Below are positions 23,331 to 47,153 of a stretch of DNA of 64,000 bases, in pieces. A program made the position numbers and the translations under genes. The stretch's first letter is position 1; every line of letters starts with the position of its first letter. The stretch is from positions 2,427,501 to 2,491,500 of the forward strand of contig NZ_CP046266.1 of NCBI RefSeq assembly GCF_009720625.1, read 5' to 3'. The stretch comes from Metabacillus sediminilitoris (lineage in GTDB: Bacteria > Bacillota > Bacilli > Bacillales > Bacillaceae). The notes beneath the pieces are model-generated. The model did not search any database, had not been told where the DNA came from, and saw only the letters and a program-made list of their open reading frames with translations.

Positions 23331-23633
23331 ATGGAGAAAAGAAAAGTATTTAGCATTCCAAAAGGTGGATTTAAAGGACAAAAATTAATCGAATTAGTAC
23401 AGTTAAGTAGTTCATTTGAAGGTGAGGTATATATTGAAAAAGATAATAAAATAATCAATGCTAAGAGCATCTTAGGGGTTTTGAGCCTGTTAATGCCTTC
23501 AAAGACTGGAATGTTTATGATCAGTGTACAGGGAAAAGATGCTGAATATACAATCCAACAAATAACTACTATTATAGAAAAGCAAATGACTACTAGGTCT
23601 AATCTTCCCCTTTGGGGATCAGGATGGTATTGA
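23331..23633 (+). CDS. HPr/Crh-like protein lacking the phospho-histidine
   Basis: A 100-residue protein with the HPr fold signature: SSFEGEVYIEKDNKIINAKS, then ILGVLSLL and a closing helix YTIQQITTIIEKQ. HPr carries PEP-derived phosphate on His15 within a GIHARPA motif; here that stretch reads KGGFKGQKLIELVQL, with no His. The regulatory Ser46 region (NAKSILGVLSL) is kept. Like Bacillus Crh, which also lacks His15, it might work only in CcpA-type regulation through Ser phosphorylation. It is more diverged than Crh. GGAGG lies close upstream of the ATG. A terminator follows at 23767. Confidence 0.7.
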   Translation: MEKRKVFSIPKGGFKGQKLIELVQLSSSFEGEVYIEKDNKIINAKSILGVLSLLMPSKTGMFMISVQGKDAEYTIQQITTIIEKQMTTRSNLPLWGSGWY

Positions 23634-23875: not shown

Positions 23876-23912
23876 GTATTCATGGCACTTTTTTAATCAC
23901 TTGTAACTTTAC

Positions 23913-23997
23913 ATCCCATAGGTCTTTCATTAGGAAGCTACAAATGGGATAGAGCCAGTTGTATCATTTTTCTTTTGATGATATAGCTGGTTTTTGT
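23913..23997 (+). ncRNA. Structured leader with CCAGTTGTA terminator, copy a
   Basis: A stem ATCCCAT (23913-23919) with ATGGGAT (23944-23950), enclosing a CTTTC/GGAAG hairpin, is followed at once by a terminator. The 5' arm AGCCAGTTGTATCA starts at 23953 and the 3' arm TGATATAGCTGGT ends in TTTTT at 23995. It lies between a SigA promoter and the coding region. The 5' arm CCAGTTGTA is shared with leaders at 27078 and 28291. Candidate attenuator or riboswitch-like element. Confidence 0.6.
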
Positions 23998-24078
23998 TTT
24001 CGAAAAATCAACGAAAAAGGAGTGGAAGGGTAGAAGAATCATAAAAAAATAGGAAAATAGAAAAGGAGATGTTTGTAT

Positions 24079-24342
24079 ATGACAAAGCTAGAACTTATTA
24101 CACAGGAGTGGATGAGCCAAGAAATTGTAACGAGCCCGCTGTATGGAACAATTGAAGAAGTGCTAATCGGAACTAATCAAAGAGTAGATGAATGGGAGCC
24201 TTTGTTTATCATTAAGAATCTCAATGGGACATTTCAACAAATAACGGTTGGGATTAGTGGTATTCTTAGCAAACTAAATGTTAGTAAAAATGATCAAATT
24301 ACGCCTGGATTTGTGATGGCACACATCATTCCGGACAAATAA
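24079..24342 (+). CDS. Biotin/lipoyl-like domain protein without attachment lysine
   Basis: An 87-residue protein whose sequence fits one biotinyl/lipoyl-type beta barrel: TSPLYGTIEEVLIGTNQRVD in the first half, GISGILSKLNVSKNDQITPG in the second, ending AHIIPDK. The hairpin that normally carries the modified Lys in an MKM motif reads IIKNLNGTFQ, so biotinylation is doubtful. AAAGGAG precedes the ATG at 24079 (MTKLELI); an ATG two codons earlier is also possible. Its promoter and structured leader link it to the glutarate module downstream, but a strong terminator at 24415 separates it from the GntR gene. Confidence 0.65.
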   Translation: MTKLELITQEWMSQEIVTSPLYGTIEEVLIGTNQRVDEWEPLFIIKNLNGTFQQITVGISGILSKLNVSKNDQITPGFVMAHIIPDK

Positions 24343-24414
24343 CAAGTAAATGACAAAATGACAATGGTGATCTGATGACGGATAATTCTAATGGACAGTT
24401 TTATTATATATGCT

Positions 24415-24462
24415 AAAAGGACAATTACTTCGCACAATTGAAGTGATTGTCCTTTTTGTTTT
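24415..24462. terminator. Strong intrinsic terminator
   Basis: AAAAGGACAATTACTTC pairs with GAAGTGATTGTCCTTTT around an eight-base loop, then TTTTT. It separates the biotinyl-like gene from the regulator gene. Confidence 0.85.
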
Positions 24463-24488
24463 TTATTAGTAAAGAAAACCTTTTCGAT

Positions 24489-24530
24489 AAACATTGTATC
24501 CAATTATTTTTATGATTGGATACAATGTTT
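24489..24530. promoter_or_regulatory. 16-bp perfect inverted repeat upstream of the GntR regulator
   Basis: AAACATTGTATCCAAT (24489-24504) is repeated in inverse at 24515-24530 with a ten-base gap. FadR-type GntR proteins bind palindromes with TTGTAT-type half-sites, and this lies about 80 bases before such a gene. It could equally be a weak bidirectional terminator, but there is no T run. Confidence 0.55.
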
Positions 24531-24610
24531 CTATTTTCATGTAGACTTTATGGTGTTAAGTTGTTATATTATTAAATAATGGATCCAATCCTAAGGAAAG
24601 GAGTGGCGTA

Positions 24611-25261
24611 TTGGATAATAAGGAAAAGTCAACAATCGTTAAAAATGTAACCAAAAGCCTTAGGAAGGCGATTTTGGATGGGACGTTAAAAAAAGGGGAT
24701 CGTCTTATTCAGGAAGAATGGGCTGAACGATTGGATGTTAGTCGAATGCCGATTCGTGAGGCGCTTACTCAACTCCAGATTGAAGGTTTGGTTGAAATGG
24801 TCCCACATAAAGGTGCAATCGTTACACCGATTACCAGAGATCATATCGAGGAAATTTATCACACGCGCTCAATATTGGAAGGGCTTGCAGTTGAAAAATC
24901 ACTTCCATTTTTAACAGATGAGGATAAAAATCAATTAAAAATGATATTGATTCAAATGGAAGAGCTTAGGCTATCAGATGAAATGAATGATCATTATATT
25001 CAGTTAAATGCATCATTCCATGAAACACTGCGTAAAGGGTGTCCATGGCCAAGAGTTCAAAAAATGGTAGAAACGCTAGGTATTTCACCAATTGCTCCAA
25101 ATTTACTTATTGACCATTATTCTGAAACACAGAAAGAGCATAGAATGATCTATGAAGCAGCATTACGGGGAGATCCTGCTGAACTGAAAGCAGCAGTGCA
25201 ATTTCATATTATGCGAACAAAAAATAATTTAATTCAGTATATGGAAATGTTAAATAGCTAA
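24611..25261 (+). CDS. GntR-family (FCD) transcriptional regulator of the glutarate module
   Basis: A 216-residue FadR-subfamily regulator. The winged helix holds LRKAILDGTLKKGDRLIQEEW and RLDVSRMPIREALTQLQIEG; the FCD ligand domain holds HIEEIYHTRSILEGLAVEKS, plus Asp/His metal-binding positions (NASFHETL, and EHRMIYEAA further on). AAAGGAG supports the TTG start. It lies 28 bases ahead of lhgO and is probably co-transcribed. By analogy with CsiR in Proteobacteria it may sense glutarate, 2-hydroxyglutarate or a relative and control lhgO and csiD. The ligand is inferred from neighbours. Confidence 0.87.
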   Translation: MDNKEKSTIVKNVTKSLRKAILDGTLKKGDRLIQEEWAERLDVSRMPIREALTQLQIEGLVEMVPHKGAIVTPITRDHIEEIYHTRSILEGLAVEKSLPFLTDEDKNQLKMILIQMEELRLSDEMNDHYIQLNASFHETLRKGCPWPRVQKMVETLGISPIAPNLLIDHYSETQKEHRMIYEAALRGDPAELKAAVQFHIMRTKNNLIQYMEMLNS

Positions 25262-25289
25262 AATCAACAATAACAAAGGGGAGCTGTAC

Positions 25290-26504
25290 ATGTTTGATTT
25301 TGCAGTTGTGGGTGGAGGAATTGTCGGTTTATCAACAGGGATGGCACTATATAATCGTTTTCCGAATGCAAAAGTAGTGATTATCGAAAAGGAGTCTGTT
25401 GTGGCAGAACATCAAACAGGTCATAACAGCGGAGTCATTCACTCTGGTATTTATTATAAACCAGGCAGCTTTAAAGCACGTTTTGCAAGACAAGGAAGTA
25501 AATCAATGACCGAATTCTGCAAAACATATGGGATTGATCACGATATTTGCGGAAAAGTCATTGTTGCGACAAAAAAGGAAGAATTACCACTTCTTGATAA
25601 CTTATATCACCGAGGACTTCAAAATGAACTGGCTATTCAAAAAATCAGTGTCGATGAATTAAAAGAAATCGAGCCACATGTTAATGGTCTTGGAGCTATT
25701 CGTGTTCCGCAAGCTGGTATCGTGAATTACAGACAAGTTAGTGAAAAATTTGCTGAGATTATTAGGCAGCATGGCGGGGAGATACGGTTTAACACAAAAG
25801 TAGAAAAAATACATGAAAAATCAAATCAAGTTACTCTTGAGACTAATCGCGGGTCGATCGAAGCGAGTACGGTCATTAATTGTGCAGGTCTTCATAGTGA
25901 CCGCGTAGCAGCGGCAGCAGGCTATAAGACAGATATGAAAATCCTGCCATTTAGGGGCGAGTATTTTAAATTAATACCAGAAAAACGCTATCTCGTTAAA
26001 CATTTAATTTACCCCGTGCCAAATCCGAAGTTCCCGTTTTTAGGGGTCCATTTTACCCGAATGATTAGTGGAGAAGTTGATGCAGGTCCAAATGCTGTGC
26101 TAAGCTTTAAACGAGAAGGATATAAAAAGACCGATTTCAGTGCAAAAGACTTAATGGAATCATTAAGTTTTCCTGGATTATGGAGGATGGCAGGAAAATT
26201 TGCAAAAGAAGGGTTAGATGAGTATGTCCGTTCTTTTAGCAAAAAGCAATTTACGAAAAGCCTTCAGGAGTTAATTCCTGAAATCAAGGAAGATGATTTA
26301 ATTCCGGCACCTGCAGGAGTTCGTGCACAAGCATTAAGACGTGATGGAAATATGGTTGATGATTTTCAAATTATTATGGGGAAACGGACAATTCACGTAT
26401 GTAACGCACCTTCCCCAGCTGCAACAGCCTCCATTGAAATTGGAAAAGAAGTTGTTAATAGAATACCAGAACAGTCTCATTTAAAAGAAAAATTGCTAGT
26501 TTAG
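25290..26504 (+). CDS. lhgO: L-2-hydroxyglutarate oxidase/dehydrogenase
   Basis: A 404-residue FAD enzyme of the LhgO/DAO family. It oxidises L-2-hydroxyglutarate to 2-oxoglutarate and, in the E. coli case, feeds electrons to the quinone pool at the membrane. The N-terminal dinucleotide motif is VVGGGIVGLSTGMAL, followed by EHQTGHNSGVIHSGIYY, the diagnostic LhgO segment. The C-terminal motif is LIPAPAGVRAQALRRDG. Length and order are normal. AAAGGGGAG precedes the ATG. It lies between the GntR gene and a DUF3870 gene (26 bases to the next start), with the glutarate hydroxylase just beyond, giving a complete glutarate to 2-oxoglutarate shunt. Confidence 0.93.
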   Translation: MFDFAVVGGGIVGLSTGMALYNRFPNAKVVIIEKESVVAEHQTGHNSGVIHSGIYYKPGSFKARFARQGSKSMTEFCKTYGIDHDICGKVIVATKKEELPLLDNLYHRGLQNELAIQKISVDELKEIEPHVNGLGAIRVPQAGIVNYRQVSEKFAEIIRQHGGEIRFNTKVEKIHEKSNQVTLETNRGSIEASTVINCAGLHSDRVAAAAGYKTDMKILPFRGEYFKLIPEKRYLVKHLIYPVPNPKFPFLGVHFTRMISGEVDAGPNAVLSFKREGYKKTDFSAKDLMESLSFPGLWRMAGKFAKEGLDEYVRSFSKKQFTKSLQELIPEIKEDDLIPAPAGVRAQALRRDGNMVDDFQIIMGKRTIHVCNAPSPAATASIEIGKEVVNRIPEQSHLKEKLLV

Positions 26505-26529
26505 TAAATTTCATTTGAGAGGATGTACA

Positions 26530-26871
26530 ATGATGTTTAATGGAAAAACAATTTTTATTGCAGGTCATGCCCGTCTACCACAAGGGATGGCGGCGAAAAG
26601 TGTCTTTGATACATTAACAATAACTGCTGAAGTTGACGTAAAGTATGGGGTTGTGCTTGAGGCTTCTTGTACGTTAGCAACAGAACACGGCCGCGATTTT
26701 ATTGGACGTTTATTAAGAGGTACTAGTTTAAGAGACGGAGTAGACGATACAATCAAAGAGATTGAGACCTATTACCGCGGGAAAGCTGCAAATGCTCTTA
26801 TTGCGGCATTAAAAGATCTTGATATCCATTTCCATCAAATTAAGACAGAAGAAAAACATAAGATAAAATAA
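26530..26871 (+). CDS. DUF3870 protein
   Basis: A 113-residue protein beginning MMFNGKTIFIAGHARLPQ. It contains VKYGVVLEASCTLATEHGRD and the Arg-rich FIGRLLRGTSLRDGV, the core of DUF3870. Function unknown; the conserved Cys and Arg residues suggest binding of a small acid. GAGAGG lies upstream of twin ATGs (26530, 26533). It is in the lhgO transcript and precedes the promoter of the hydroxylase gene, so its role is likely in glutarate/2-hydroxyglutarate metabolism. That is inference from position. Confidence 0.8.
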   Translation: MMFNGKTIFIAGHARLPQGMAAKSVFDTLTITAEVDVKYGVVLEASCTLATEHGRDFIGRLLRGTSLRDGVDDTIKEIETYYRGKAANALIAALKDLDIHFHQIKTEEKHKIK

Positions 26872-26894
26872 TGATAAAAGTTTAAAAAAATTTG

Positions 26895-26925
26895 TTGACG
26901 GACGAGTATGTAAGCGCTATACTTA
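26895..26925 (+). promoter_or_regulatory. csiD promoter with overlapping cre-like site
   Basis: TTGACG (26895-26900), a 17-base spacer and TATACT (26918-26923). TGTAAGCGCTAT (26909-26920) overlaps the -10 and matches the CcpA cre consensus TGWAARCGYTWNCW in its first 12 positions. Carbon catabolite repression of the hydroxylase gene is therefore likely. Confidence 0.75.
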
Positions 26926-27003
26926 AATTAATCAAATGTTTCTAATATTTCCACCTTTTGGAAAATAACCTTTCAAAATTCGTGGATCATTATAAATACT
27001 TGG

Positions 27004-27148
27004 AAACAGGAAACGTAAAATAACAATAACTGCTAATTCGCTGTGACTCTATTTACATAGAGCAGTGAAGTGAATTTAAGCCAGTTGTACATGTGAATCC
27101 CTATTTTAGTAGGGAACGTGTGCAGCTGGCTTTTTATATTTCCTGTTT
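27004..27148 (+). ncRNA. Structured leader with CCAGTTGTA terminator, copy b
   Basis: Between the csiD promoter and gene lies a nested fold. AAACAGGAAA (27004-27013) pairs with TTTCCTGTTT (27139-27148) around everything. Inside are AATTCGCT/AGTGAATT (27035-27042, 27069-27076) enclosing a CTCTAT/ATAGAG hairpin. Then comes a 16-bp terminator stem, AAGCCAGTTGTACATG (27078-27093) with 27117-27132, ending in TTTTT. The outer stem uses the bases just after the T run, as an alternative fold would. This is the best resolved member of the three leaders. Confidence 0.65.
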
Positions 27149-27190
27149 GCTTGATTTACCTATCTTATACAAAATGGGAGGAATTTAGTT

Positions 27191-28129
27191 ATGGGTATTG
27201 TAGAAAAGCAAAGAGGAAAGTTTGAAGTTAAAACTGAGAAGTATGAGGTGAAAGTTCACCCGCAAACAAATCGTATGTATCATATTGTCCTAGCTAAAAA
27301 GGCAATAGAAGGATTTTTAGAAGCAGTGAAACAAGCAGATTATTCTGTCCAGCATTTAGAATATACGCCATACGCACGTTTGATTGCTTCATCTTTACTA
27401 TTAGAACAAGTTGGCGAAGAGTTTGGTGAAATTCTTCGTAGCATCGTTCATGATCGTGAGTCCGGTGGATTTACAATTGGTTTAGAAGGTGTCACACAAG
27501 ATACGGATGAATATGTCATCTTCTCAACTGCGATTTCTTATTTATTAGGTTCATCAAATTTTGATTCGATGTCAGGAAAATATTATGCACGATTTACTGT
27601 TAACCATACGGATAATAGTGACTCATATCTACGTCAAGCCTACCGTTTATTTACACTTCATACAGATGGCACATTTGTCGATGAACCAACAGACTGGTTA
27701 TTAATGATGAAAATGGTTGAAGTAAATGCGCGTGGTGGTGAGTCACGTTTATTACACCTAGATGACTGGAAAGAACTAGATAAGTATGCGAACCACCCAT
27801 TAGCAAGCCATAAATTCACATATAAAGCACCATCAAGTAAAAATGTTGATCAAGAAGTCCAACGTTTAACATTCTTTAATTATAATAATAAGCCTGGTGT
27901 TTGTTTTATTGATCAATTCGTTTATCCTGAAACAATTGAGGAGGCAACATATCTTCGTGACCTCTCGCAATCAATGGAAAATGATGATAGTGTCATCGAA
28001 CTTGAACTCCCAGTTGGGGATCTAGTAGTCGTAAATAATATTTTCTGGCTTCATGGCCGCGCTGCATTCGAAGTTAATCCTAACTTGAATCGTGAATTGC
28101 TTCGCCAACGGGGACGATTTAATCAATAA
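27191..28129 (+). CDS. glaH: Glutarate 2-hydroxylase (CsiD/GlaH family)
   Basis: A 312-residue Fe(II)/2-oxoglutarate dioxygenase of the CsiD family, which hydroxylates glutarate to L-2-hydroxyglutarate with release of succinate and CO2. The metal motif HTDGTF (His and Asp near residue 157) lies in RLFTLHTDGTFVDEP; the distal His is in FWLHGRAAFEVNP and the 2-oxoglutarate-binding Arg in RELLRQRGRF. Length matches E. coli GlaH (about 325). GGGAGG precedes the ATG. The product is the substrate of the lhgO enzyme encoded upstream. Expression appears controlled by its own promoter, a cre site and a terminator-bearing leader. Glutarate probably comes from lysine breakdown. Confidence 0.92.
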   Translation: MGIVEKQRGKFEVKTEKYEVKVHPQTNRMYHIVLAKKAIEGFLEAVKQADYSVQHLEYTPYARLIASSLLLEQVGEEFGEILRSIVHDRESGGFTIGLEGVTQDTDEYVIFSTAISYLLGSSNFDSMSGKYYARFTVNHTDNSDSYLRQAYRLFTLHTDGTFVDEPTDWLLMMKMVEVNARGGESRLLHLDDWKELDKYANHPLASHKFTYKAPSSKNVDQEVQRLTFFNYNNKPGVCFIDQFVYPETIEEATYLRDLSQSMENDDSVIELELPVGDLVVVNNIFWLHGRAAFEVNPNLNRELLRQRGRFNQ

Positions 28130-28155
28130 TGAATTCGAGAAGCTAACATTATTAC

Positions 28156-28192
28156 AATAAGTTTGATTGAAAAAAGACAAACTTATTTTCAT
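28156..28192. terminator. Terminator of glaH
   Basis: Stem AATAAGTTTG/CAAACTTATT with a 12-base loop and TTTTC tail, shortly after the glaH stop codon. Confidence 0.75.
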
Positions 28193-28254
28193 GATTTCGG
28201 TTAGAAACATTAACATCATTTCGTAAGTGGAAAATGAATATATAAAACTGTCAA

Positions 28255-28343
28255 GTTTACCGTACTTCAAGTGATTGGAATGAAAATCATAAACCAGTTG
28301 TACGTTCGGCTTAATTTTAGGTCGAAGTATAACTGGTTTTTTA
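28255..28343 (+). ncRNA. CCAGTTGTA terminator element, copy c
   Basis: AAACCAGTTGTAC (28291-28303) pairs with GTATAACTGGTTT (28327-28339), then TTTTTT. Upstream, GTTTA (28255-28259) can pair with TAAAC (28290-28294), which invades the terminator's 5' arm, as an antiterminator would. Unlike copies a and b, no gene starts within 400 bases, so the gene it served may be lost or may be the transporter at 28747. Confidence 0.55.
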
Positions 28344-28746: not shown

Positions 28747-29979
28747 ATGCTTCAAAATCCAACAGGAAAAGAGCGATTAGCCTTGGCATTTCTTCTGAGT
28801 TTACTCGGAATGTTAGGGCCGTTTAATATTGATATGTATTTACCTAGTTTTCCCGACATCGCTAATGATTTAGGGACTCGTGCATCACTTGTGCAACTTA
28901 GTTTAACAGCGTGCTTGATCGGACTTGCGGTTGGTCAGGTGGTTGTTGGGCCGATTAGTGATGCGAAAGGGAGAAGGAAACCATTGCTGGTATCAATCTC
29001 ATTATTTGCGGTATCATCTCTTCTTTGTGCACTTGCTCCTAATATTGAGACATTGGTTGCAGCACGATTCCTACAAGGCTTCACAGCGTCGGCGGGGATT
29101 GTTCTTTCAAGGGCAGTTGTTCGTGATGTGTTTAGCGGAAGAGAGCTTTCAAAATTCTTTGCCCTTTTAATGGTCATTAATGCGACAGCTCCAATGATTG
29201 CCCCAATGGCGGGGGGGGCTATCCTGCTCATGCCGTCTTCAAACTGGAATACGATTTTTTACTTTTTAAGCTTGTTAGGAATTTTTATAGTGTTAATGGT
29301 GGCTTTCCGTCTAAAGGAAACATTGCCGCCTGAAAAGCGAATGCCAAGCTCTGTCGGACAATCGGTTCGTACAATGGGAAGCCTAATGAAGGACCGTTCC
29401 TTTATGGGTTACGCATTGACCGTTGGTTTTGTTCACGGTGGAAGCTTTGCTTATGTATCAGGAACTCCTTTCGTTTACCAGGGGATTTATGATGTGTCAC
29501 CACAAGTATTTAGTATTTTGTTTGGGATTAATGGTCTTGCGATTATTTCAGGGAGTTTTATCATCGGGCGCTTTGGCGGAATCGTTGGAGAAAAACGCTT
29601 GCTTCGTAATGCCGTCATCATTGCCGTATCTGCAACATTTGTCCTGCTGATCATGACGATCATTGAAGGACCGCTGGCAACGCTTGTCATCCCGATATTT
29701 ATTTACATGACAACAATGGGAATGATCCTGACAAGCTCCTTTACACTGGCGATGGAAAAACAAGGACATCGTGCCGGCAGTGCAAGTGCTGTTTTAGGTT
29801 TGCTCCCGTTATTACTTGGATCCATGGTTTCTCCGCTCGTTGGTATTGATGAGTCGACAGCAGTACCGATGGGAGCTATTTTATTTAGTACTTCCTTCAT
29901 TGGTTCGATTGCTTTCTTTACATTGACAAAGAAGAAAATTCATAAAGTAGCAAGTGTGTTGAACAATGTGGAAGGCTAA
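28747..29979 (+). CDS. Bcr/CflA-family multidrug efflux MFS transporter
   Basis: A 410-residue, 12-helix transporter of the Bcr/CflA type. It shows LLGMLGPFNIDMYLPSFPDI at the start, typical of the family, then GPISDAKGRRKPLL (motif A) and ARFLQGFTASAGIVLSRAVV (motif C-like region). These proton antiporters export drugs such as bicyclomycin or sulfonamides, and some export amino acids. It starts at ATG 28747; AAAGGTGG lies upstream. Monocistronic, closed by a terminator at 30023. Any link to the glutarate module is only by proximity. Confidence 0.9.
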   Translation: MLQNPTGKERLALAFLLSLLGMLGPFNIDMYLPSFPDIANDLGTRASLVQLSLTACLIGLAVGQVVVGPISDAKGRRKPLLVSISLFAVSSLLCALAPNIETLVAARFLQGFTASAGIVLSRAVVRDVFSGRELSKFFALLMVINATAPMIAPMAGGAILLMPSSNWNTIFYFLSLLGIFIVLMVAFRLKETLPPEKRMPSSVGQSVRTMGSLMKDRSFMGYALTVGFVHGGSFAYVSGTPFVYQGIYDVSPQVFSILFGINGLAIISGSFIIGRFGGIVGEKRLLRNAVIIAVSATFVLLIMTIIEGPLATLVIPIFIYMTTMGMILTSSFTLAMEKQGHRAGSASAVLGLLPLLLGSMVSPLVGIDESTAVPMGAILFSTSFIGSIAFFTLTKKKIHKVASVLNNVEG

Positions 29980-45213: not shown

Positions 45214-47153
45214 GTGCGGCCAAGCTTAGGTCGTATCATATAACGGGTGGGATTCCCGTCGAGTAAGAACTAGCCATTCGCTCGTAGAGTCTTGGAGGAC
45301 TAAAGGTAACTTTAGTCTTTAAGCGTAGACAGTTAGGTGGCGGGCCGAAAGCCAACTGGTTGAAGGGATTGAGCTCCATAATGATTGTAAATCGAGAGGG
45401 CTGATGCTTTAAGCGCTGCAGAAAGCTACATTTTATCTTTCGATAAAGGCAAGAAGGGTAAAACCTCTCTGGAGTCATAGACCTTGGCACGTTATACATT
45501 GATATGATACGGCAACTTGGGAGACCCTACCGGTCTTTTCTTTTTTTAGAAGAGTATGGTGTACAAGCGATAAAAAGCAAGGAAACCAAATGCCGATGTA
45601 GGGAGTCGGATAGCGGCGTAGTACCAATGAAGTTGGGTAATGCCGATGGAGGAAAGGCTGCTACCTAGTTATCACCCTTGCTAGGGACACATTTACTACA
45701 CACAGAGGTAGGTATAACTAAATGGAAACAAAACTACTAAGGATAGCAGAATTAGCAAAATCTGATCCTAAAATGAAATTCACATCACTTGCACATTTAT
45801 TAAATAAGCAAGTACTAGCTCAATGTCATCATGAACTACCCAATAGGAAAGCAACCGGGATTAACGGTACAACTAAAGAGAAATACGGTGAAAATTTAGA
45901 AGAAAACATAGAGGAGTTAGTAAGTAGGCTTAAAAGCAAAAGTTATCGTCCTGTTCCAGTAAGGAGAATGTATATTCCGAAGCTCAATTCAAATAAGAAA
46001 AGACCATTAGGAATACCGGAACACGAAGACAAGATTGTTCAAAAAGGCATTACAAAGATACTAAATACCATCTTTGAAAATGATTTTCTAGATTGTTCCT
46101 TTGGGTTTCGTCCTAACCGTAGTTGCCATGATGCTTTGAAAATACTGAACTTCTATATTGAAAAGAGATCAGTAAATTATGTAGTTGATGTCGATATTAA
46201 AGGATTCTTTGACAACGTTGACCACAAATGGATGATGGAGTTCTTAAAACTGCGAATTGCTGACCCCAACCTATTAAGAATAATTGGTAGGTTTCTTAAA
46301 GGTGGATACATGGAGGAAGGTAAGAAATACAAAACAGACAATGGCACACCGCAAGGTGGAGTAATATCTCCGGTATTAGCCAATGTGTATCTCCATTATG
46401 TCCTCGACTTATGGTTTGAGAAAAAGGTCAAGAAACAATGCAAGGGGCAGGCATATATAGTAAGGTATGCAGATGACTTTGTGTGCTGTTTTCAATATCA
46501 GAGCGAAGCTCAGGAATTCTTCCAATCATTAAAATGTAGATTAAAGAAATTTAACTTGGAAATTGCCGAGGATAAAACCAAAATTATTCCCTTCGGGCGG
46601 TTTGCTGAGAAATATGCAAAACAAAAGGGAAATAGTAAACCAGCGACCTTTGATTTCCTAGGCTTTACACACTATTGCGGGAAAAGCAAACAAGGGAAAT
46701 TTCGGGTGAAACGGAAATCCAGTAGGAAGAAAGTCCAAGGTAAACTAAAAGAGTCTAAAGAATGGCTGAAGAAGAATAGAAATAAAGATATTCATATGAT
46801 CATGGACAGATTTAGACGCTCGCTTATAGGTTATTACAACTATTATTGCATAACTGATAATACCCTAAATGTTAGCAACTTCAAAGATAAAATCGAGAAC
46901 TTACTGTTTAAATGGCTCAATAGAAGAAGTCAAAGGAAATCCTTTACATGGGATAAATTCAGACTATTTCTTGATAAATATCCACTACCTTCACCGAAAA
47001 TTAAAGTGAATATATATGATTTAAGAAAAGAAATTAGCTACATTCTGTGAACGATGACTAGGAGGAGCCGTGTGCATTAATAGTGCAAGCACGGTTCTGT
47101 GAGGGGATGGAGTACAATTTACCGTAAGGTAGAAAGGCCCCCTTCTACTCGAC
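45214..47153 (+). mobile_element. Group II intron with internal reverse transcriptase
   Basis: The element begins GTGCGGCCAAG (45214), with a structured 5' region of about 500 bases, then the reverse transcriptase gene (45722-47050). Domain V lies at about 47065-47106 (GAGCCGTGTGC, ATTAATAG region, then GCACGGTTCTGTGAGGGG), and domain VI ends CTACTCGAC (47153). These are the standard group II landmarks. It sits in intergenic DNA whose left flank (GATCTTCAAGAATCAGGCGCT) matches the dispersed repeat seen intact at about 48958. Ends are set by motif and could be off by a base or two. Confidence 0.88.
45722..47050 (+). CDS. ltrA: Group II intron reverse transcriptase/maturase
   Basis: A 442-residue intron-encoded protein. 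The RT domain shows RRMYIPKLNSNKKRPLGIPE, VVDVDIKGFFDNVDH (catalytic Asp), NGTPQGGVISPVLANVYL and the YADD box in IVRYADDFVCCFQ. The maturase domain X follows (RFRRSLIGYYNYYCITDN). The protein ends soon after X without an HNH endonuclease domain, like the shorter bacterial group II proteins. It should help the intron splice and, lacking En, move by using nascent DNA strands. The frame is undamaged. Confidence 0.93.
   Translation: METKLLRIAELAKSDPKMKFTSLAHLLNKQVLAQCHHELPNRKATGINGTTKEKYGENLEENIEELVSRLKSKSYRPVPVRRMYIPKLNSNKKRPLGIPEHEDKIVQKGITKILNTIFENDFLDCSFGFRPNRSCHDALKILNFYIEKRSVNYVVDVDIKGFFDNVDHKWMMEFLKLRIADPNLLRIIGRFLKGGYMEEGKKYKTDNGTPQGGVISPVLANVYLHYVLDLWFEKKVKKQCKGQAYIVRYADDFVCCFQYQSEAQEFFQSLKCRLKKFNLEIAEDKTKIIPFGRFAEKYAKQKGNSKPATFDFLGFTHYCGKSKQGKFRVKRKSSRKKVQGKLKESKEWLKKNRNKDIHMIMDRFRRSLIGYYNYYCITDNTLNVSNFKDKIENLLFKWLNRRSQRKSFTWDKFRLFLDKYPLPSPKIKVNIYDLRKEISYIL

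What the first reader, a model, noticed from the sequence alone, without database searches (positions are those of the whole stretch)
23913..28343. Three related attenuator-like leaders in the glutarate module
Terminators with a shared 5' arm (CCAGTTGTA) lie at 23953, 27078 and 28291. Each is preceded by a separate stem that ends within a few bases of, or overlaps, the terminator arm. Copies a and b lie between a good SigA promoter and a gene. The stems differ in sequence but stay paired, with consistent G-U changes. Copy b also has a 10-bp outer stem (27004-27013 with 27139-27148) using bases beyond the T run. I know of no riboswitch or antiterminator class with this arm. It could bind a pathway metabolite such as glutarate or 2-hydroxyglutarate, or a protein.
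Basis: partly seen in the sequence, partly recalled or inferred. Interest (0 to 1): 0.75.

Follow-up and report, generated by a model that had tools for sequence, protein, structure and literature searches.

The report
Antiterminator leader of glutarate genes
A Bacillus-like bacterium carries, in front of a glutarate-breakdown gene, an RNA on/off switch of a kind not found in the databases and papers searched here; the same switch precedes glutarate and lysine-breakdown genes in many bacteria, whose genomes nearly always also encode an uncharacterised small protein (DUF3870) that may be the missing sensor.

Summary
Copy b, upstream of csiD, is real and belongs to a conserved leader-RNA class. 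A short helix P1 (AACUG:CAGUU) encloses stems P2 and P3; its 3' strand is also part of the terminator's 5' arm. The terminator is more stable, so read-through needs something to hold P1. A covariance model finds the element within 400 nt upstream of csiD in 76 of 80 named loci (36 of 40 outside its training set), with compensatory changes in every helix. In 329 class genomes, 22 of 26 newly fetched hits precede csiD, a CoA-transferase/acyl-CoA-dehydrogenase operon of glutarate type, an aldehyde dehydrogenase or an amino-acid permease. No Rfam family matches. Copy a is a probable divergent member; copy c is doubtful: "attenuator" holds, "three related copies" only in part. The strongest new lead is DUF3870: encoded in 38 of 38 RNA-positive genomes of the order sample and 18 of 20 of the class sample, and DUF3870 paralogues beside other operons mostly abut an attenuator of like architecture. 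I propose that DUF3870 proteins are ligand-responsive antitermination factors, here sensing glutarate or a derivative. That step is inferred; one genus has the RNA without DUF3870, so a direct riboswitch stays open.

The parts
26895..26923 (+). promoter match of the csiD leader (copy b), TTGACG-17-TATACT
   Evidence: 10 of 12; a consensus match is not proof of function
26950..26986 (+). domain 1 of copy b: hairpin with outer stem UCCAC/GUGGA, internal loop, inner stem
   Evidence: covariation figures are flattering because copies and registers were chosen by pairing
27004..27013 (+). 5' strand of outer helix P0 of copy b (partner 27139-27148, beyond the T run)
   Evidence: matched loci pair better than mismatched ones, no correction for kinship
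27028..27032 (+). P1 5' strand AACUG (antiterminator)
27036..27075 (+). P2 (27036-27041/27070-27075) and P3 (27047-27051/27058-27062) with an asymmetric internal loop
   Evidence: two-sided changes in every P2 and P3 pair
27082..27086 (+). P1 3' strand CAGUU, shared with the terminator 5' arm
27079..27135 (+). intrinsic terminator of copy b (hairpin 27079-27131, T run 27131-27135)
   Evidence: -34.8 kcal/mol, against -16.8 for domain 2 with P1
27139..27148 (+). 3' strand of outer helix P0 of copy b
27191..28129 (+). csiD (glutarate hydroxylase family), gene behind copy b
   Evidence: PF08943 E 5e-124
26530..26871 (+). DUF3870 protein, candidate antitermination factor
   Evidence: PF12986 E 5e-27; co-occurrence; IscU-like predicted fold
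25290..26504 (+). LhgO-like FAD oxidoreductase
   Evidence: PF01266; name by gene context
24611..25261 (+). GntR/FCD regulator (CsiR-like by position)
   Evidence: PF00392 and PF07729
23847..23875 (+). promoter match of copy a, TTGACA-17-TATGAT
   Evidence: 11 of 12
23905..23962 (+). copy a: divergent domain 2; AACU at 23905-23908 opposite AGUU, P2 and P3 pair, no domain 1 seen
   Evidence: 17.5 bits, E 0.01; in L148 a leader of 36.7 bits (R1) precedes a homologue of the gene behind copy a. The minimum-energy fold of copy a alone does not form P1
23951..23994 (+). terminator of copy a
24073..24342 (+). 89-aa lipoyl-like protein behind copy a
   Evidence: PF13533, 23.1 bits, below its cut-off
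28246..28301 (+). copy c: P1-like AACUG...CAGUU without P2/P3 (doubtful member)
28291..28337 (+). terminator of copy c

Best explanation
The csiD leader is an antitermination attenuator. SHOWN by sequence comparison: the 5' strand xxCUG can pair with the CAGxx of the terminator's 5' arm (P1), with a conserved two-stem element between, so P1 and the terminator exclude each other. INFERRED: P1 forms first during transcription; by default the more stable terminator displaces it and transcription stops before csiD; when the pathway substrate is plentiful a bound factor locks P1 and RNA polymerase reads through. INFERRED, most likely factor: a DUF3870 protein, acting as a ligand-responsive RNA-binding antiterminator that senses glutarate or a close derivative; DUF3870 paralogues would do the same for their own operons (DUF819 membrane protein, an epimerase of the enolase superfamily, D-aminopeptidase/peptide transport).
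For: Terminator and leader upstream of csiD in 29 of 29 order loci with enough upstream DNA (30 of the 51 csiD matches came with a locus, L025 lies at a contig end). Model R1 hits within 400 nt upstream of csiD in 76 of 80 named loci at E<=1, 75 of them at E<=0.012; 40 of the 80 were training sequences, and of the other 40 it hits 36, several of which are identical to trained ones. Covariation: 93.2% of 1562 cells paired, 226 cells changed on both sides against 59 in shuffles, 13 of 16 pairs two-sided (alignment fitted to the model; the last count is reached by 78 of 500 shuffles); on the MAFFT alignment 89.2% and 72 cells against 20. Regulon: of 26 newly fetched loci among 32 hits in 329 class genomes, 12 precede csiD, 6 a CoA-transferase III + acyl-CoA dehydrogenase pair, 2 the dehydrogenase alone, 1 an ALDH, 1 an amino-acid permease, 3 a small Cys-rich ORF, and 1 is copy c. 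R2 gives 0 hits at E<=1 in 400 kb of real control DNA. DUF3870: all 38 RNA-positive of 397 order genomes carry it (168 carriers; hypergeometric 4e-16, no correction for kinship); 18 of 20 RNA-positive of 329 class genomes (84 carriers). It lies within the fetched region in 70 of 80 csiD loci, and the 8 of the other 10 that I checked have a DUF3870 elsewhere in the genome. DUF3870 paralogues: 30 of 30 subfamily-2 loci have a CCAG-armed terminator just behind the stop codon (by eye); the strict descriptor gives 22 hits in 96 kb there against 2 in 400 kb of control DNA.
Against: Two genomes of one genus (G642, G666) have the RNA before the acyl-CoA-dehydrogenase gene and no DUF3870 even at E<=10. 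DUF3870's predicted fold is IscU-like with middling Z (7.9), not a recognised RNA-binding fold. The likeness of glutarate and non-glutarate attenuators is weak at sequence level: model R3 from non-glutarate members gives copy b only 12.4 bits, E 0.56, fourth behind three other places; over 58 chosen sources it gives 11 hits at E<=1, of which 7 are glutarate leaders in register and 1 another DUF3870-linked leader. In 7 of 23 further DUF3870 places (L245-L264) I saw no attenuator behind the gene (L247, L250, L254, L255, L256, L258, L261; L255 is ambiguous), and P1 is uncertain in L246, L249 and L263. Of 38 class genomes with a strong glutarate-type DUF3870 match but no R2 hit I read 16: 12 have a leader by descriptor, R2 or eye, 4 are unclear or without. 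Co-occurrence can reflect a shared metabolic role. No expression data.
Confidence: 0.5

Rival explanations
1. A true riboswitch: the leader itself (domain 1, domain 2 or both) binds glutarate or a related metabolite and stabilises P1. DUF3870 is only a metabolic companion gene.
For: RNA without DUF3870 in G642 and G666. Domain 1 is a second recurrent structure with a recurrent internal loop. The regulon is mostly one pathway. The element also occurs before csiD in Ignatzschineria and Wohlfahrtiimonas records.
Against: Unpaired positions of domain 2 vary widely between families and the best-kept bases are CUG/CAG of P1, unlike a ligand pocket. Copies without a visible domain 1 exist (copy a; L207, L212). 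DUF3870 paralogues abut like attenuators of other operons.
Confidence: 0.3
2. Another trans factor (unknown protein or small RNA) acts on P1; DUF3870 is linked only by metabolism.
For: Same exceptions as for the riboswitch; no direct evidence that DUF3870 binds RNA.
Against: No systematic search for other companions was made; of the module's own genes, LhgO- and GntR-like genes are not beside the csiD of the Ignatzschineria/Wohlfahrtiimonas loci while DUF3870 is.
Confidence: 0.12
3. The bound factor favours termination (OFF switch) rather than antitermination.
For: Direction cannot be read from structure alone.
Against: The controlled genes are catabolic and P1 is weaker than the terminator, so holding P1 is the natural regulated step.
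Confidence: 0.06
4. Ordinary terminators with a chance shared arm.
For: Copy c lacks P2/P3 and may be this.
Against: Covariation, gene association and controls for copy b.
Confidence: 0.02

Closest known systems
HutP / hut operon antitermination (Bacillus subtilis; recalled; PMC8934654 and PMC7430163 hold the word, of which I saw only search listings)
   Same: Small regulator gene followed by a regulated terminator and the catabolic genes; substrate-dependent antitermination would be the same logic.
   Different: The DUF3870 model looks IscU-like; HutP was not among the 50 entries shown, which does not exclude it. The RNA element is not the HutP site as I recall it.
BglG/SacY/LicT RAT antiterminators (recalled)
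   Same: A short hairpin with asymmetric loops whose 3' part overlaps the terminator, held by a protein.
   Different: Different size, sequence and gene company as far as seen; not tested.
Leader classes of Rfam 15 (riboswitches, T-box and others)
   Same: Cis leader with mutually exclusive antiterminator and terminator.
   Different: No family reaches its gathering score on the leaders tested, and copies a-c give only unrelated weak hits at E<=5.
CsiR (GntR) control of csiD in E. coli and P. putida (PMC6265302, PMC6667623; passages read)
   Same: Same genes, glutarate as effector, a GntR gene in the cluster.
   Different: DNA-binding repressor; the E. coli glaH (csiD) locus shows no such leader (7 kb, best R2 score 10.8 bits).

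Membership tests
Known Rfam leader classes | covariance-model score at or above gathering | tested here: not met
   whole window: only group II intron pieces; 14 related loci: only an unrelated SAM riboswitch in L260; at E<=5 gives three unrelated weak hits
T-box leaders | match to the Rfam T-box model | tested here: not met
   gathering threshold, all Rfam families
HutP antitermination | regulator gene immediately upstream of a regulated terminator | tested here: inconclusive
   the arrangement DUF3870 - terminator - next gene is seen in 30 of 30 subfamily-2 loci by eye, but that the terminator is regulated is not tested
HutP antitermination | regulator belongs to the HutP fold/family | tested here: inconclusive
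HutP antitermination | substrate-dependent binding to UAG-type triplets | not tested
   needs bench work; site recalled
BglG/LicT RAT antitermination | CAT-domain protein and PTS control | not tested
   recalled features; no such gene was sought
Riboswitch (any) | direct metabolite binding by RNA | not testable with these tools
   in-line probing needed
Attenuator (mutually exclusive antiterminator/terminator) | conserved helix sharing bases with a terminator arm | tested here: met

The most novel reading that the evidence does not exclude
DUF3870 proteins (predicted IscU-like fold) are a new, widespread family of ligand-responsive RNA-binding antitermination factors of Bacillota, shared with some Gammaproteobacteria; each paralogue works on its own CUG/CCAG-type attenuator, and the glutarate branch controls csiD, the glutarate-type CoA-transferase/acyl-CoA dehydrogenase, 5-aminovalerate enzymes and permeases.
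Probability: 0.45. Interest if true: 0.9.

Novelty: new variant of a known kind. Interest (0 to 1): 0.8.

Why it matters
It would give a regulon, a cis element and a likely sensor for glutarate catabolism in Bacilli; the two regulation papers read in part describe DNA-binding regulators in E. coli and P. putida. It would also give a testable function to a protein family that Pfam lists as unknown. If DUF3870 is the factor, a family of RNA-based switches with different ligands becomes readable from genome sequence, and the parts are small enough to serve as glutarate sensors.

Tried and rejected
Chance terminators: rejected for copy b (covariation, gene association, controls). Known leader class: Rfam scans negative. 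HutP-like fold for DUF3870: a motif resemblance came to mind, but the model looked IscU-like, so no fold claim is made; HutP was not among the 50 entries shown, which excludes nothing. PDB sequence search with the DUF3870 profile found nothing significant (best E 0.49). One paper assigns PF12986 to the C-terminal half of Bacteroides BVU_4064 (PMC4387736, passages); the profile of the present proteins does not list that structure, left unresolved. DUF3870 as obligatory partner: weakened by G642/G666. One model for all DUF3870-linked attenuators (R3): only weak cross-hits, so common descent of all these RNAs is not claimed. Early miscount: half of the csiD loci seemed to lack the leader because loci from the genome search are not turned to the match strand; corrected. 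Literature searches that listed no description of this leader or of DUF3870 as a regulator: csiD+riboswitch, glutarate/lhgO/Bacillus, any two (20 of 330 listed), DUF3870 (53), glutarate+riboswitch (96, 12 of 25 listed), glutaryl-CoA dehydrogenase+antitermination (97). Only listings were seen for these, except the passages named; subscription papers and preprints are mostly outside that library.
Full report
WHAT IS THERE. The window lies in a 5.6-Mb single-contig genome. The module holds an HPr-like gene (23331-23633), an 89-aa lipoyl-like gene (24073-24342), GntR/FCD (24611-25261), an LhgO-like oxidoreductase (25290-26504), DUF3870 (26530-26871), csiD (27191-28129) and an MFS transporter (28747-29979). 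Among 80 genomes of the own family, the own one included, only the own genome has a full CsiD (the one other match is a 26% identical partial hit); in the order sample 50 of 397 genomes match. So the module was probably acquired (inference).

THE ELEMENT. Copy b: domain 1 (26950-26986), a spacer, then domain 2: P1 5' strand AACUG (27028-27032), P2, an asymmetric internal loop, P3 with its loop, P2', and CAGUU (27082-27086), which is both the P1 3' strand and part of the terminator 5' arm. Domain 2 with P1 folds at -16.8 kcal/mol, the terminator at -34.8. This is the layout of an antiterminator that must be held to win.

CONSERVATION. Of 51 csiD matches in the order 30 came with a locus; 29 of them show the leader (17, 12), the thirtieth (L025) has almost no upstream DNA. 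Of 80 named csiD loci, model R1 (41 sequences of A3, 40 of them from these loci) gives a hit within 400 nt upstream in 76 at E<=1, 75 of them at E<=0.012 (counted): 36 of the 40 not used in training, several of these identical to trained ones. The four without a hit: L087, L088 and L116, where a terminator is visible by eye, and L089, where csiD follows lhgO directly. The named set includes Ignatzschineria and Wohlfahrtiimonas (Gammaproteobacteria, as I recall). Covariation: 13 of 16 pairs have changes on both sides; the three that never vary are the CUG:CAG core of P1. On the MAFFT alignment 89.2% of cells pair (shuffle mean 77.1, slid controls 30-42). The shuffles do not correct for relatedness, and the number of two-sided pairs (13) is reached by 78 of 500 shuffles while cells paired, double-change cells (226 against 59) and the covariation score are reached by none. 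Domain 1: I examined 72 copies, kept 48, and in the 47 that could be parsed 226 of 235 outer and 229 of 235 inner cells pair, against 134 and 141 with rows swapped; copies and registers were chosen by pairing, so this is flattering. Domain 1 was not seen in copy a, copy c, L207 and L212 among others.

THE REGULON. Model R1 over 397 order genomes gave 46 matches in 38 genomes at E<=0.01. I fetched 20 regions, mainly around matches away from csiD or second copies; they hold 25 R1 matches at E<=0.05. Read against ORFs (Pfam for ten proteins, the rest by like N-terminal letters): 9 before a CoA-transferase III gene followed by an acyl-CoA dehydrogenase, 2 before such a dehydrogenase alone, 4 before csiD, one each before an aldehyde dehydrogenase, a class-III aminotransferase, an amino-acid permease, a homologue of the window's lipoyl-like gene, an ABC-transporter ATPase, a hydantoinase gene, a Rieske oxygenase and a GntR gene (gap of 376 nt); one lies inside an ORF (L165, probably false) and one has no clear gene (L166). 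Model R2 (115 rows of A4) over 329 class genomes gave 32 matches in 20 genomes, 16 of them not in the order sample. Of 26 newly fetched loci: csiD 12, CoA-transferase 6, dehydrogenase 2, ALDH 1, permease 1, a small Cys-rich ORF 3 (L215, L216, L221), copy c 1; four further matches are csiD leaders already seen, two had no locus and were not read. R2 gives no hit in 400 kb of DNA from five genomes in which A5 or PF12986 found no DUF3870. The CoA-transferase/dehydrogenase pair is read as glutarate-CoA transferase plus glutaryl-CoA dehydrogenase by analogy with gcoT/gcdH of P. putida (PMC6667623, passages); substrate specificity is not tested here. Most named functions fit lysine - 5-aminovalerate - glutarate breakdown; the hydantoinase, ABC and Rieske cases do not obviously. 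The E. coli glaH region has no such leader.

COPIES A AND C. With filters off R2 gives a 17.5 bits, E 0.01 in 8 kb, not in training; P2 and P3 pair, one P1 pair is broken, and alone the region does not fold into P1. A homologous gene (56% identical) in another genome has a leader of 36.7 bits (L148). I take a as a divergent member, probability about 0.75. Copy c scores 25.4 bits with R1, but P2 and P3 do not form; only a weak promoter match; the next gene starts 400 nt on. I would not count it.

DUF3870. All 38 RNA-positive order genomes encode DUF3870 (168 of 397 do; compared by eye; hypergeometric 4e-16, uncorrected for kinship). In the class sample 18 of 20 RNA-positive genomes have it (84 of 329; 6e-10). 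The two exceptions, G642 and G666, are one genus and stay negative at E<=10. In 70 of 80 named csiD loci DUF3870 lies in the fetched region; of the other ten, two are short contigs and the eight checked have DUF3870 elsewhere (subfamily not determined). In the seven Ignatzschineria/Wohlfahrtiimonas loci (L087, L088, L090-L093, L096) and the Lysobacteraceae MAG (L085) DUF3870 lies on the csiD strand 274-1248 nt upstream of csiD, and no LhgO-like gene is adjacent. Of 56 class genomes with a strong A5 match (120 bits or more) 38 had no R2 hit; I fetched 16 of these 38 (L228-L243). Fourteen are CoA-transferase and/or dehydrogenase clusters, one is a csiD cluster (L241), one has no recognised pathway gene (L235). 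Searched alone, R2 finds 5 of the 16 at E<=0.022; the descriptor finds a leader in 10; with L237 (R2) and L229 (by eye) that makes 12 of 16. P1 letters change together (AACUG:CGGUU in L229, GCUG:CGGC in L228). L233, L242 and L243 are unclear, L235 shows none.

THE WIDER FAMILY. The 30 best PF12986 hits (L167-L196) belong to a second subfamily. In 30 of 30 a CCAG-armed terminator stands just behind the DUF3870 stop codon, preceded in nearly all by xYUG and one hairpin (by eye; L176 has CUA); P1 letters change together (AACUG:CAGUU in L183, GAUUG:CAGUC in L185, AGCUG:CAGCU, GCUG:CAGC). A strict descriptor (xYUG, P2 of at least 5 bp, CCRG terminator) finds 22 hits in these 96 kb, 10 in 118 kb around more distant DUF3870 genes and 14 in 181 kb of L228-L243 (11 of them at leaders, one of which precedes an aminotransferase), against 0.0, 0.2 and 0.2 in shuffles and 2 in 400 kb of real control DNA; in the csiD loci 89 plus-strand against 5 minus-strand hits, 75 of 80 loci with at least one. 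I wrote the descriptor after seeing such sites, so the controls, not the hit counts, are the test. In L245-L264 I see such an attenuator by eye in 16 of 23 DUF3870 places, P1 being uncertain in three. Genes behind the attenuators: DUF819, an enolase-superfamily enzyme, an M55 D-aminopeptidase, peptide ABC transport (read from ORF letters). DUF3870 occurs in 8 of 59 phylum genomes including the own one; of the 8 foreign loci read, one passes the descriptor (L291), six more look alike by eye with other P1 letters, L285 does not. A model of 22 non-glutarate members (R3) hits glutarate leaders only weakly but in register (58 chosen sources: 7 of 11 hits at E<=1; control 1 hit in 400 kb), and in the window copy b ranks fourth at E 0.56. 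So the common architecture is supported by place and layout, not by strong sequence similarity.

MECHANISM AND VERDICT. Shown: a conserved, covarying attenuator layout with pathway-specific gene company. Inferred: antitermination by stabilising P1; induction by a pathway metabolite; DUF3870 as the sensor. The riboswitch alternative keeps about 0.3 because of G642/G666 and domain 1. A specialist would find the RNA class new and the DUF3870 link surprising and directly testable.

Noticed in passing
window 26909-26922: TGTAAGCGCTATAC, a cre-like (CcpA) site by recalled consensus, overlaps the -10 box of the csiD promoter.
   Followed up: no
window 45250-45484 and 47063-47153: Two group II intron pieces (RF02005 and RF00029) on the + strand.
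   Followed up: no
window 23331-23633: A 100-aa HPr-like protein stands upstream of copy a (PF00381).
   Followed up: no
L215, L216, L221: Leaders of this class precede a small Cys-rich ORF (MCKKTGCGKCPNCP... in L215 and L216, MCKLASGCKNCGGCK... in L221), read by eye.
   Followed up: partly
L248, L259, L260, L262, upstream of DUF3870: A different hairpin-rich leader seems to stand before the DUF3870 gene of peptide-transport operons (by eye).
   Followed up: no
L147:3876-6971: A Rieske oxygenase and a downstream transporter-like ORF follow a weak R1 hit (24.8 bits) beside the glutarate cluster; possibly breakdown of 5-aminovalerate betaine (guess).
   Followed up: no
L085, L087, L088, L090-L093, L096: csiD and DUF3870 occur together in Ignatzschineria, Wohlfahrtiimonas and a Lysobacteraceae MAG (R1 leader hit in six of these eight loci), suggesting transfer of the unit across phyla.
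   Followed up: partly
PF12986: PMC4387736 assigns PF12986 to part of a Bacteroides structure that the present DUF3870 profile does not list.
   Followed up: partly
window 27004-27013 with 27139-27148: Outer helix P0, which can form only after the T run is passed, recurs in many relatives; its role is unexplained.
   Followed up: partly
L156:293-1285: A glutaminase gene (PF04960) stands before the lipoyl-like and LhgO-like genes of a glutarate cluster.
   Followed up: no
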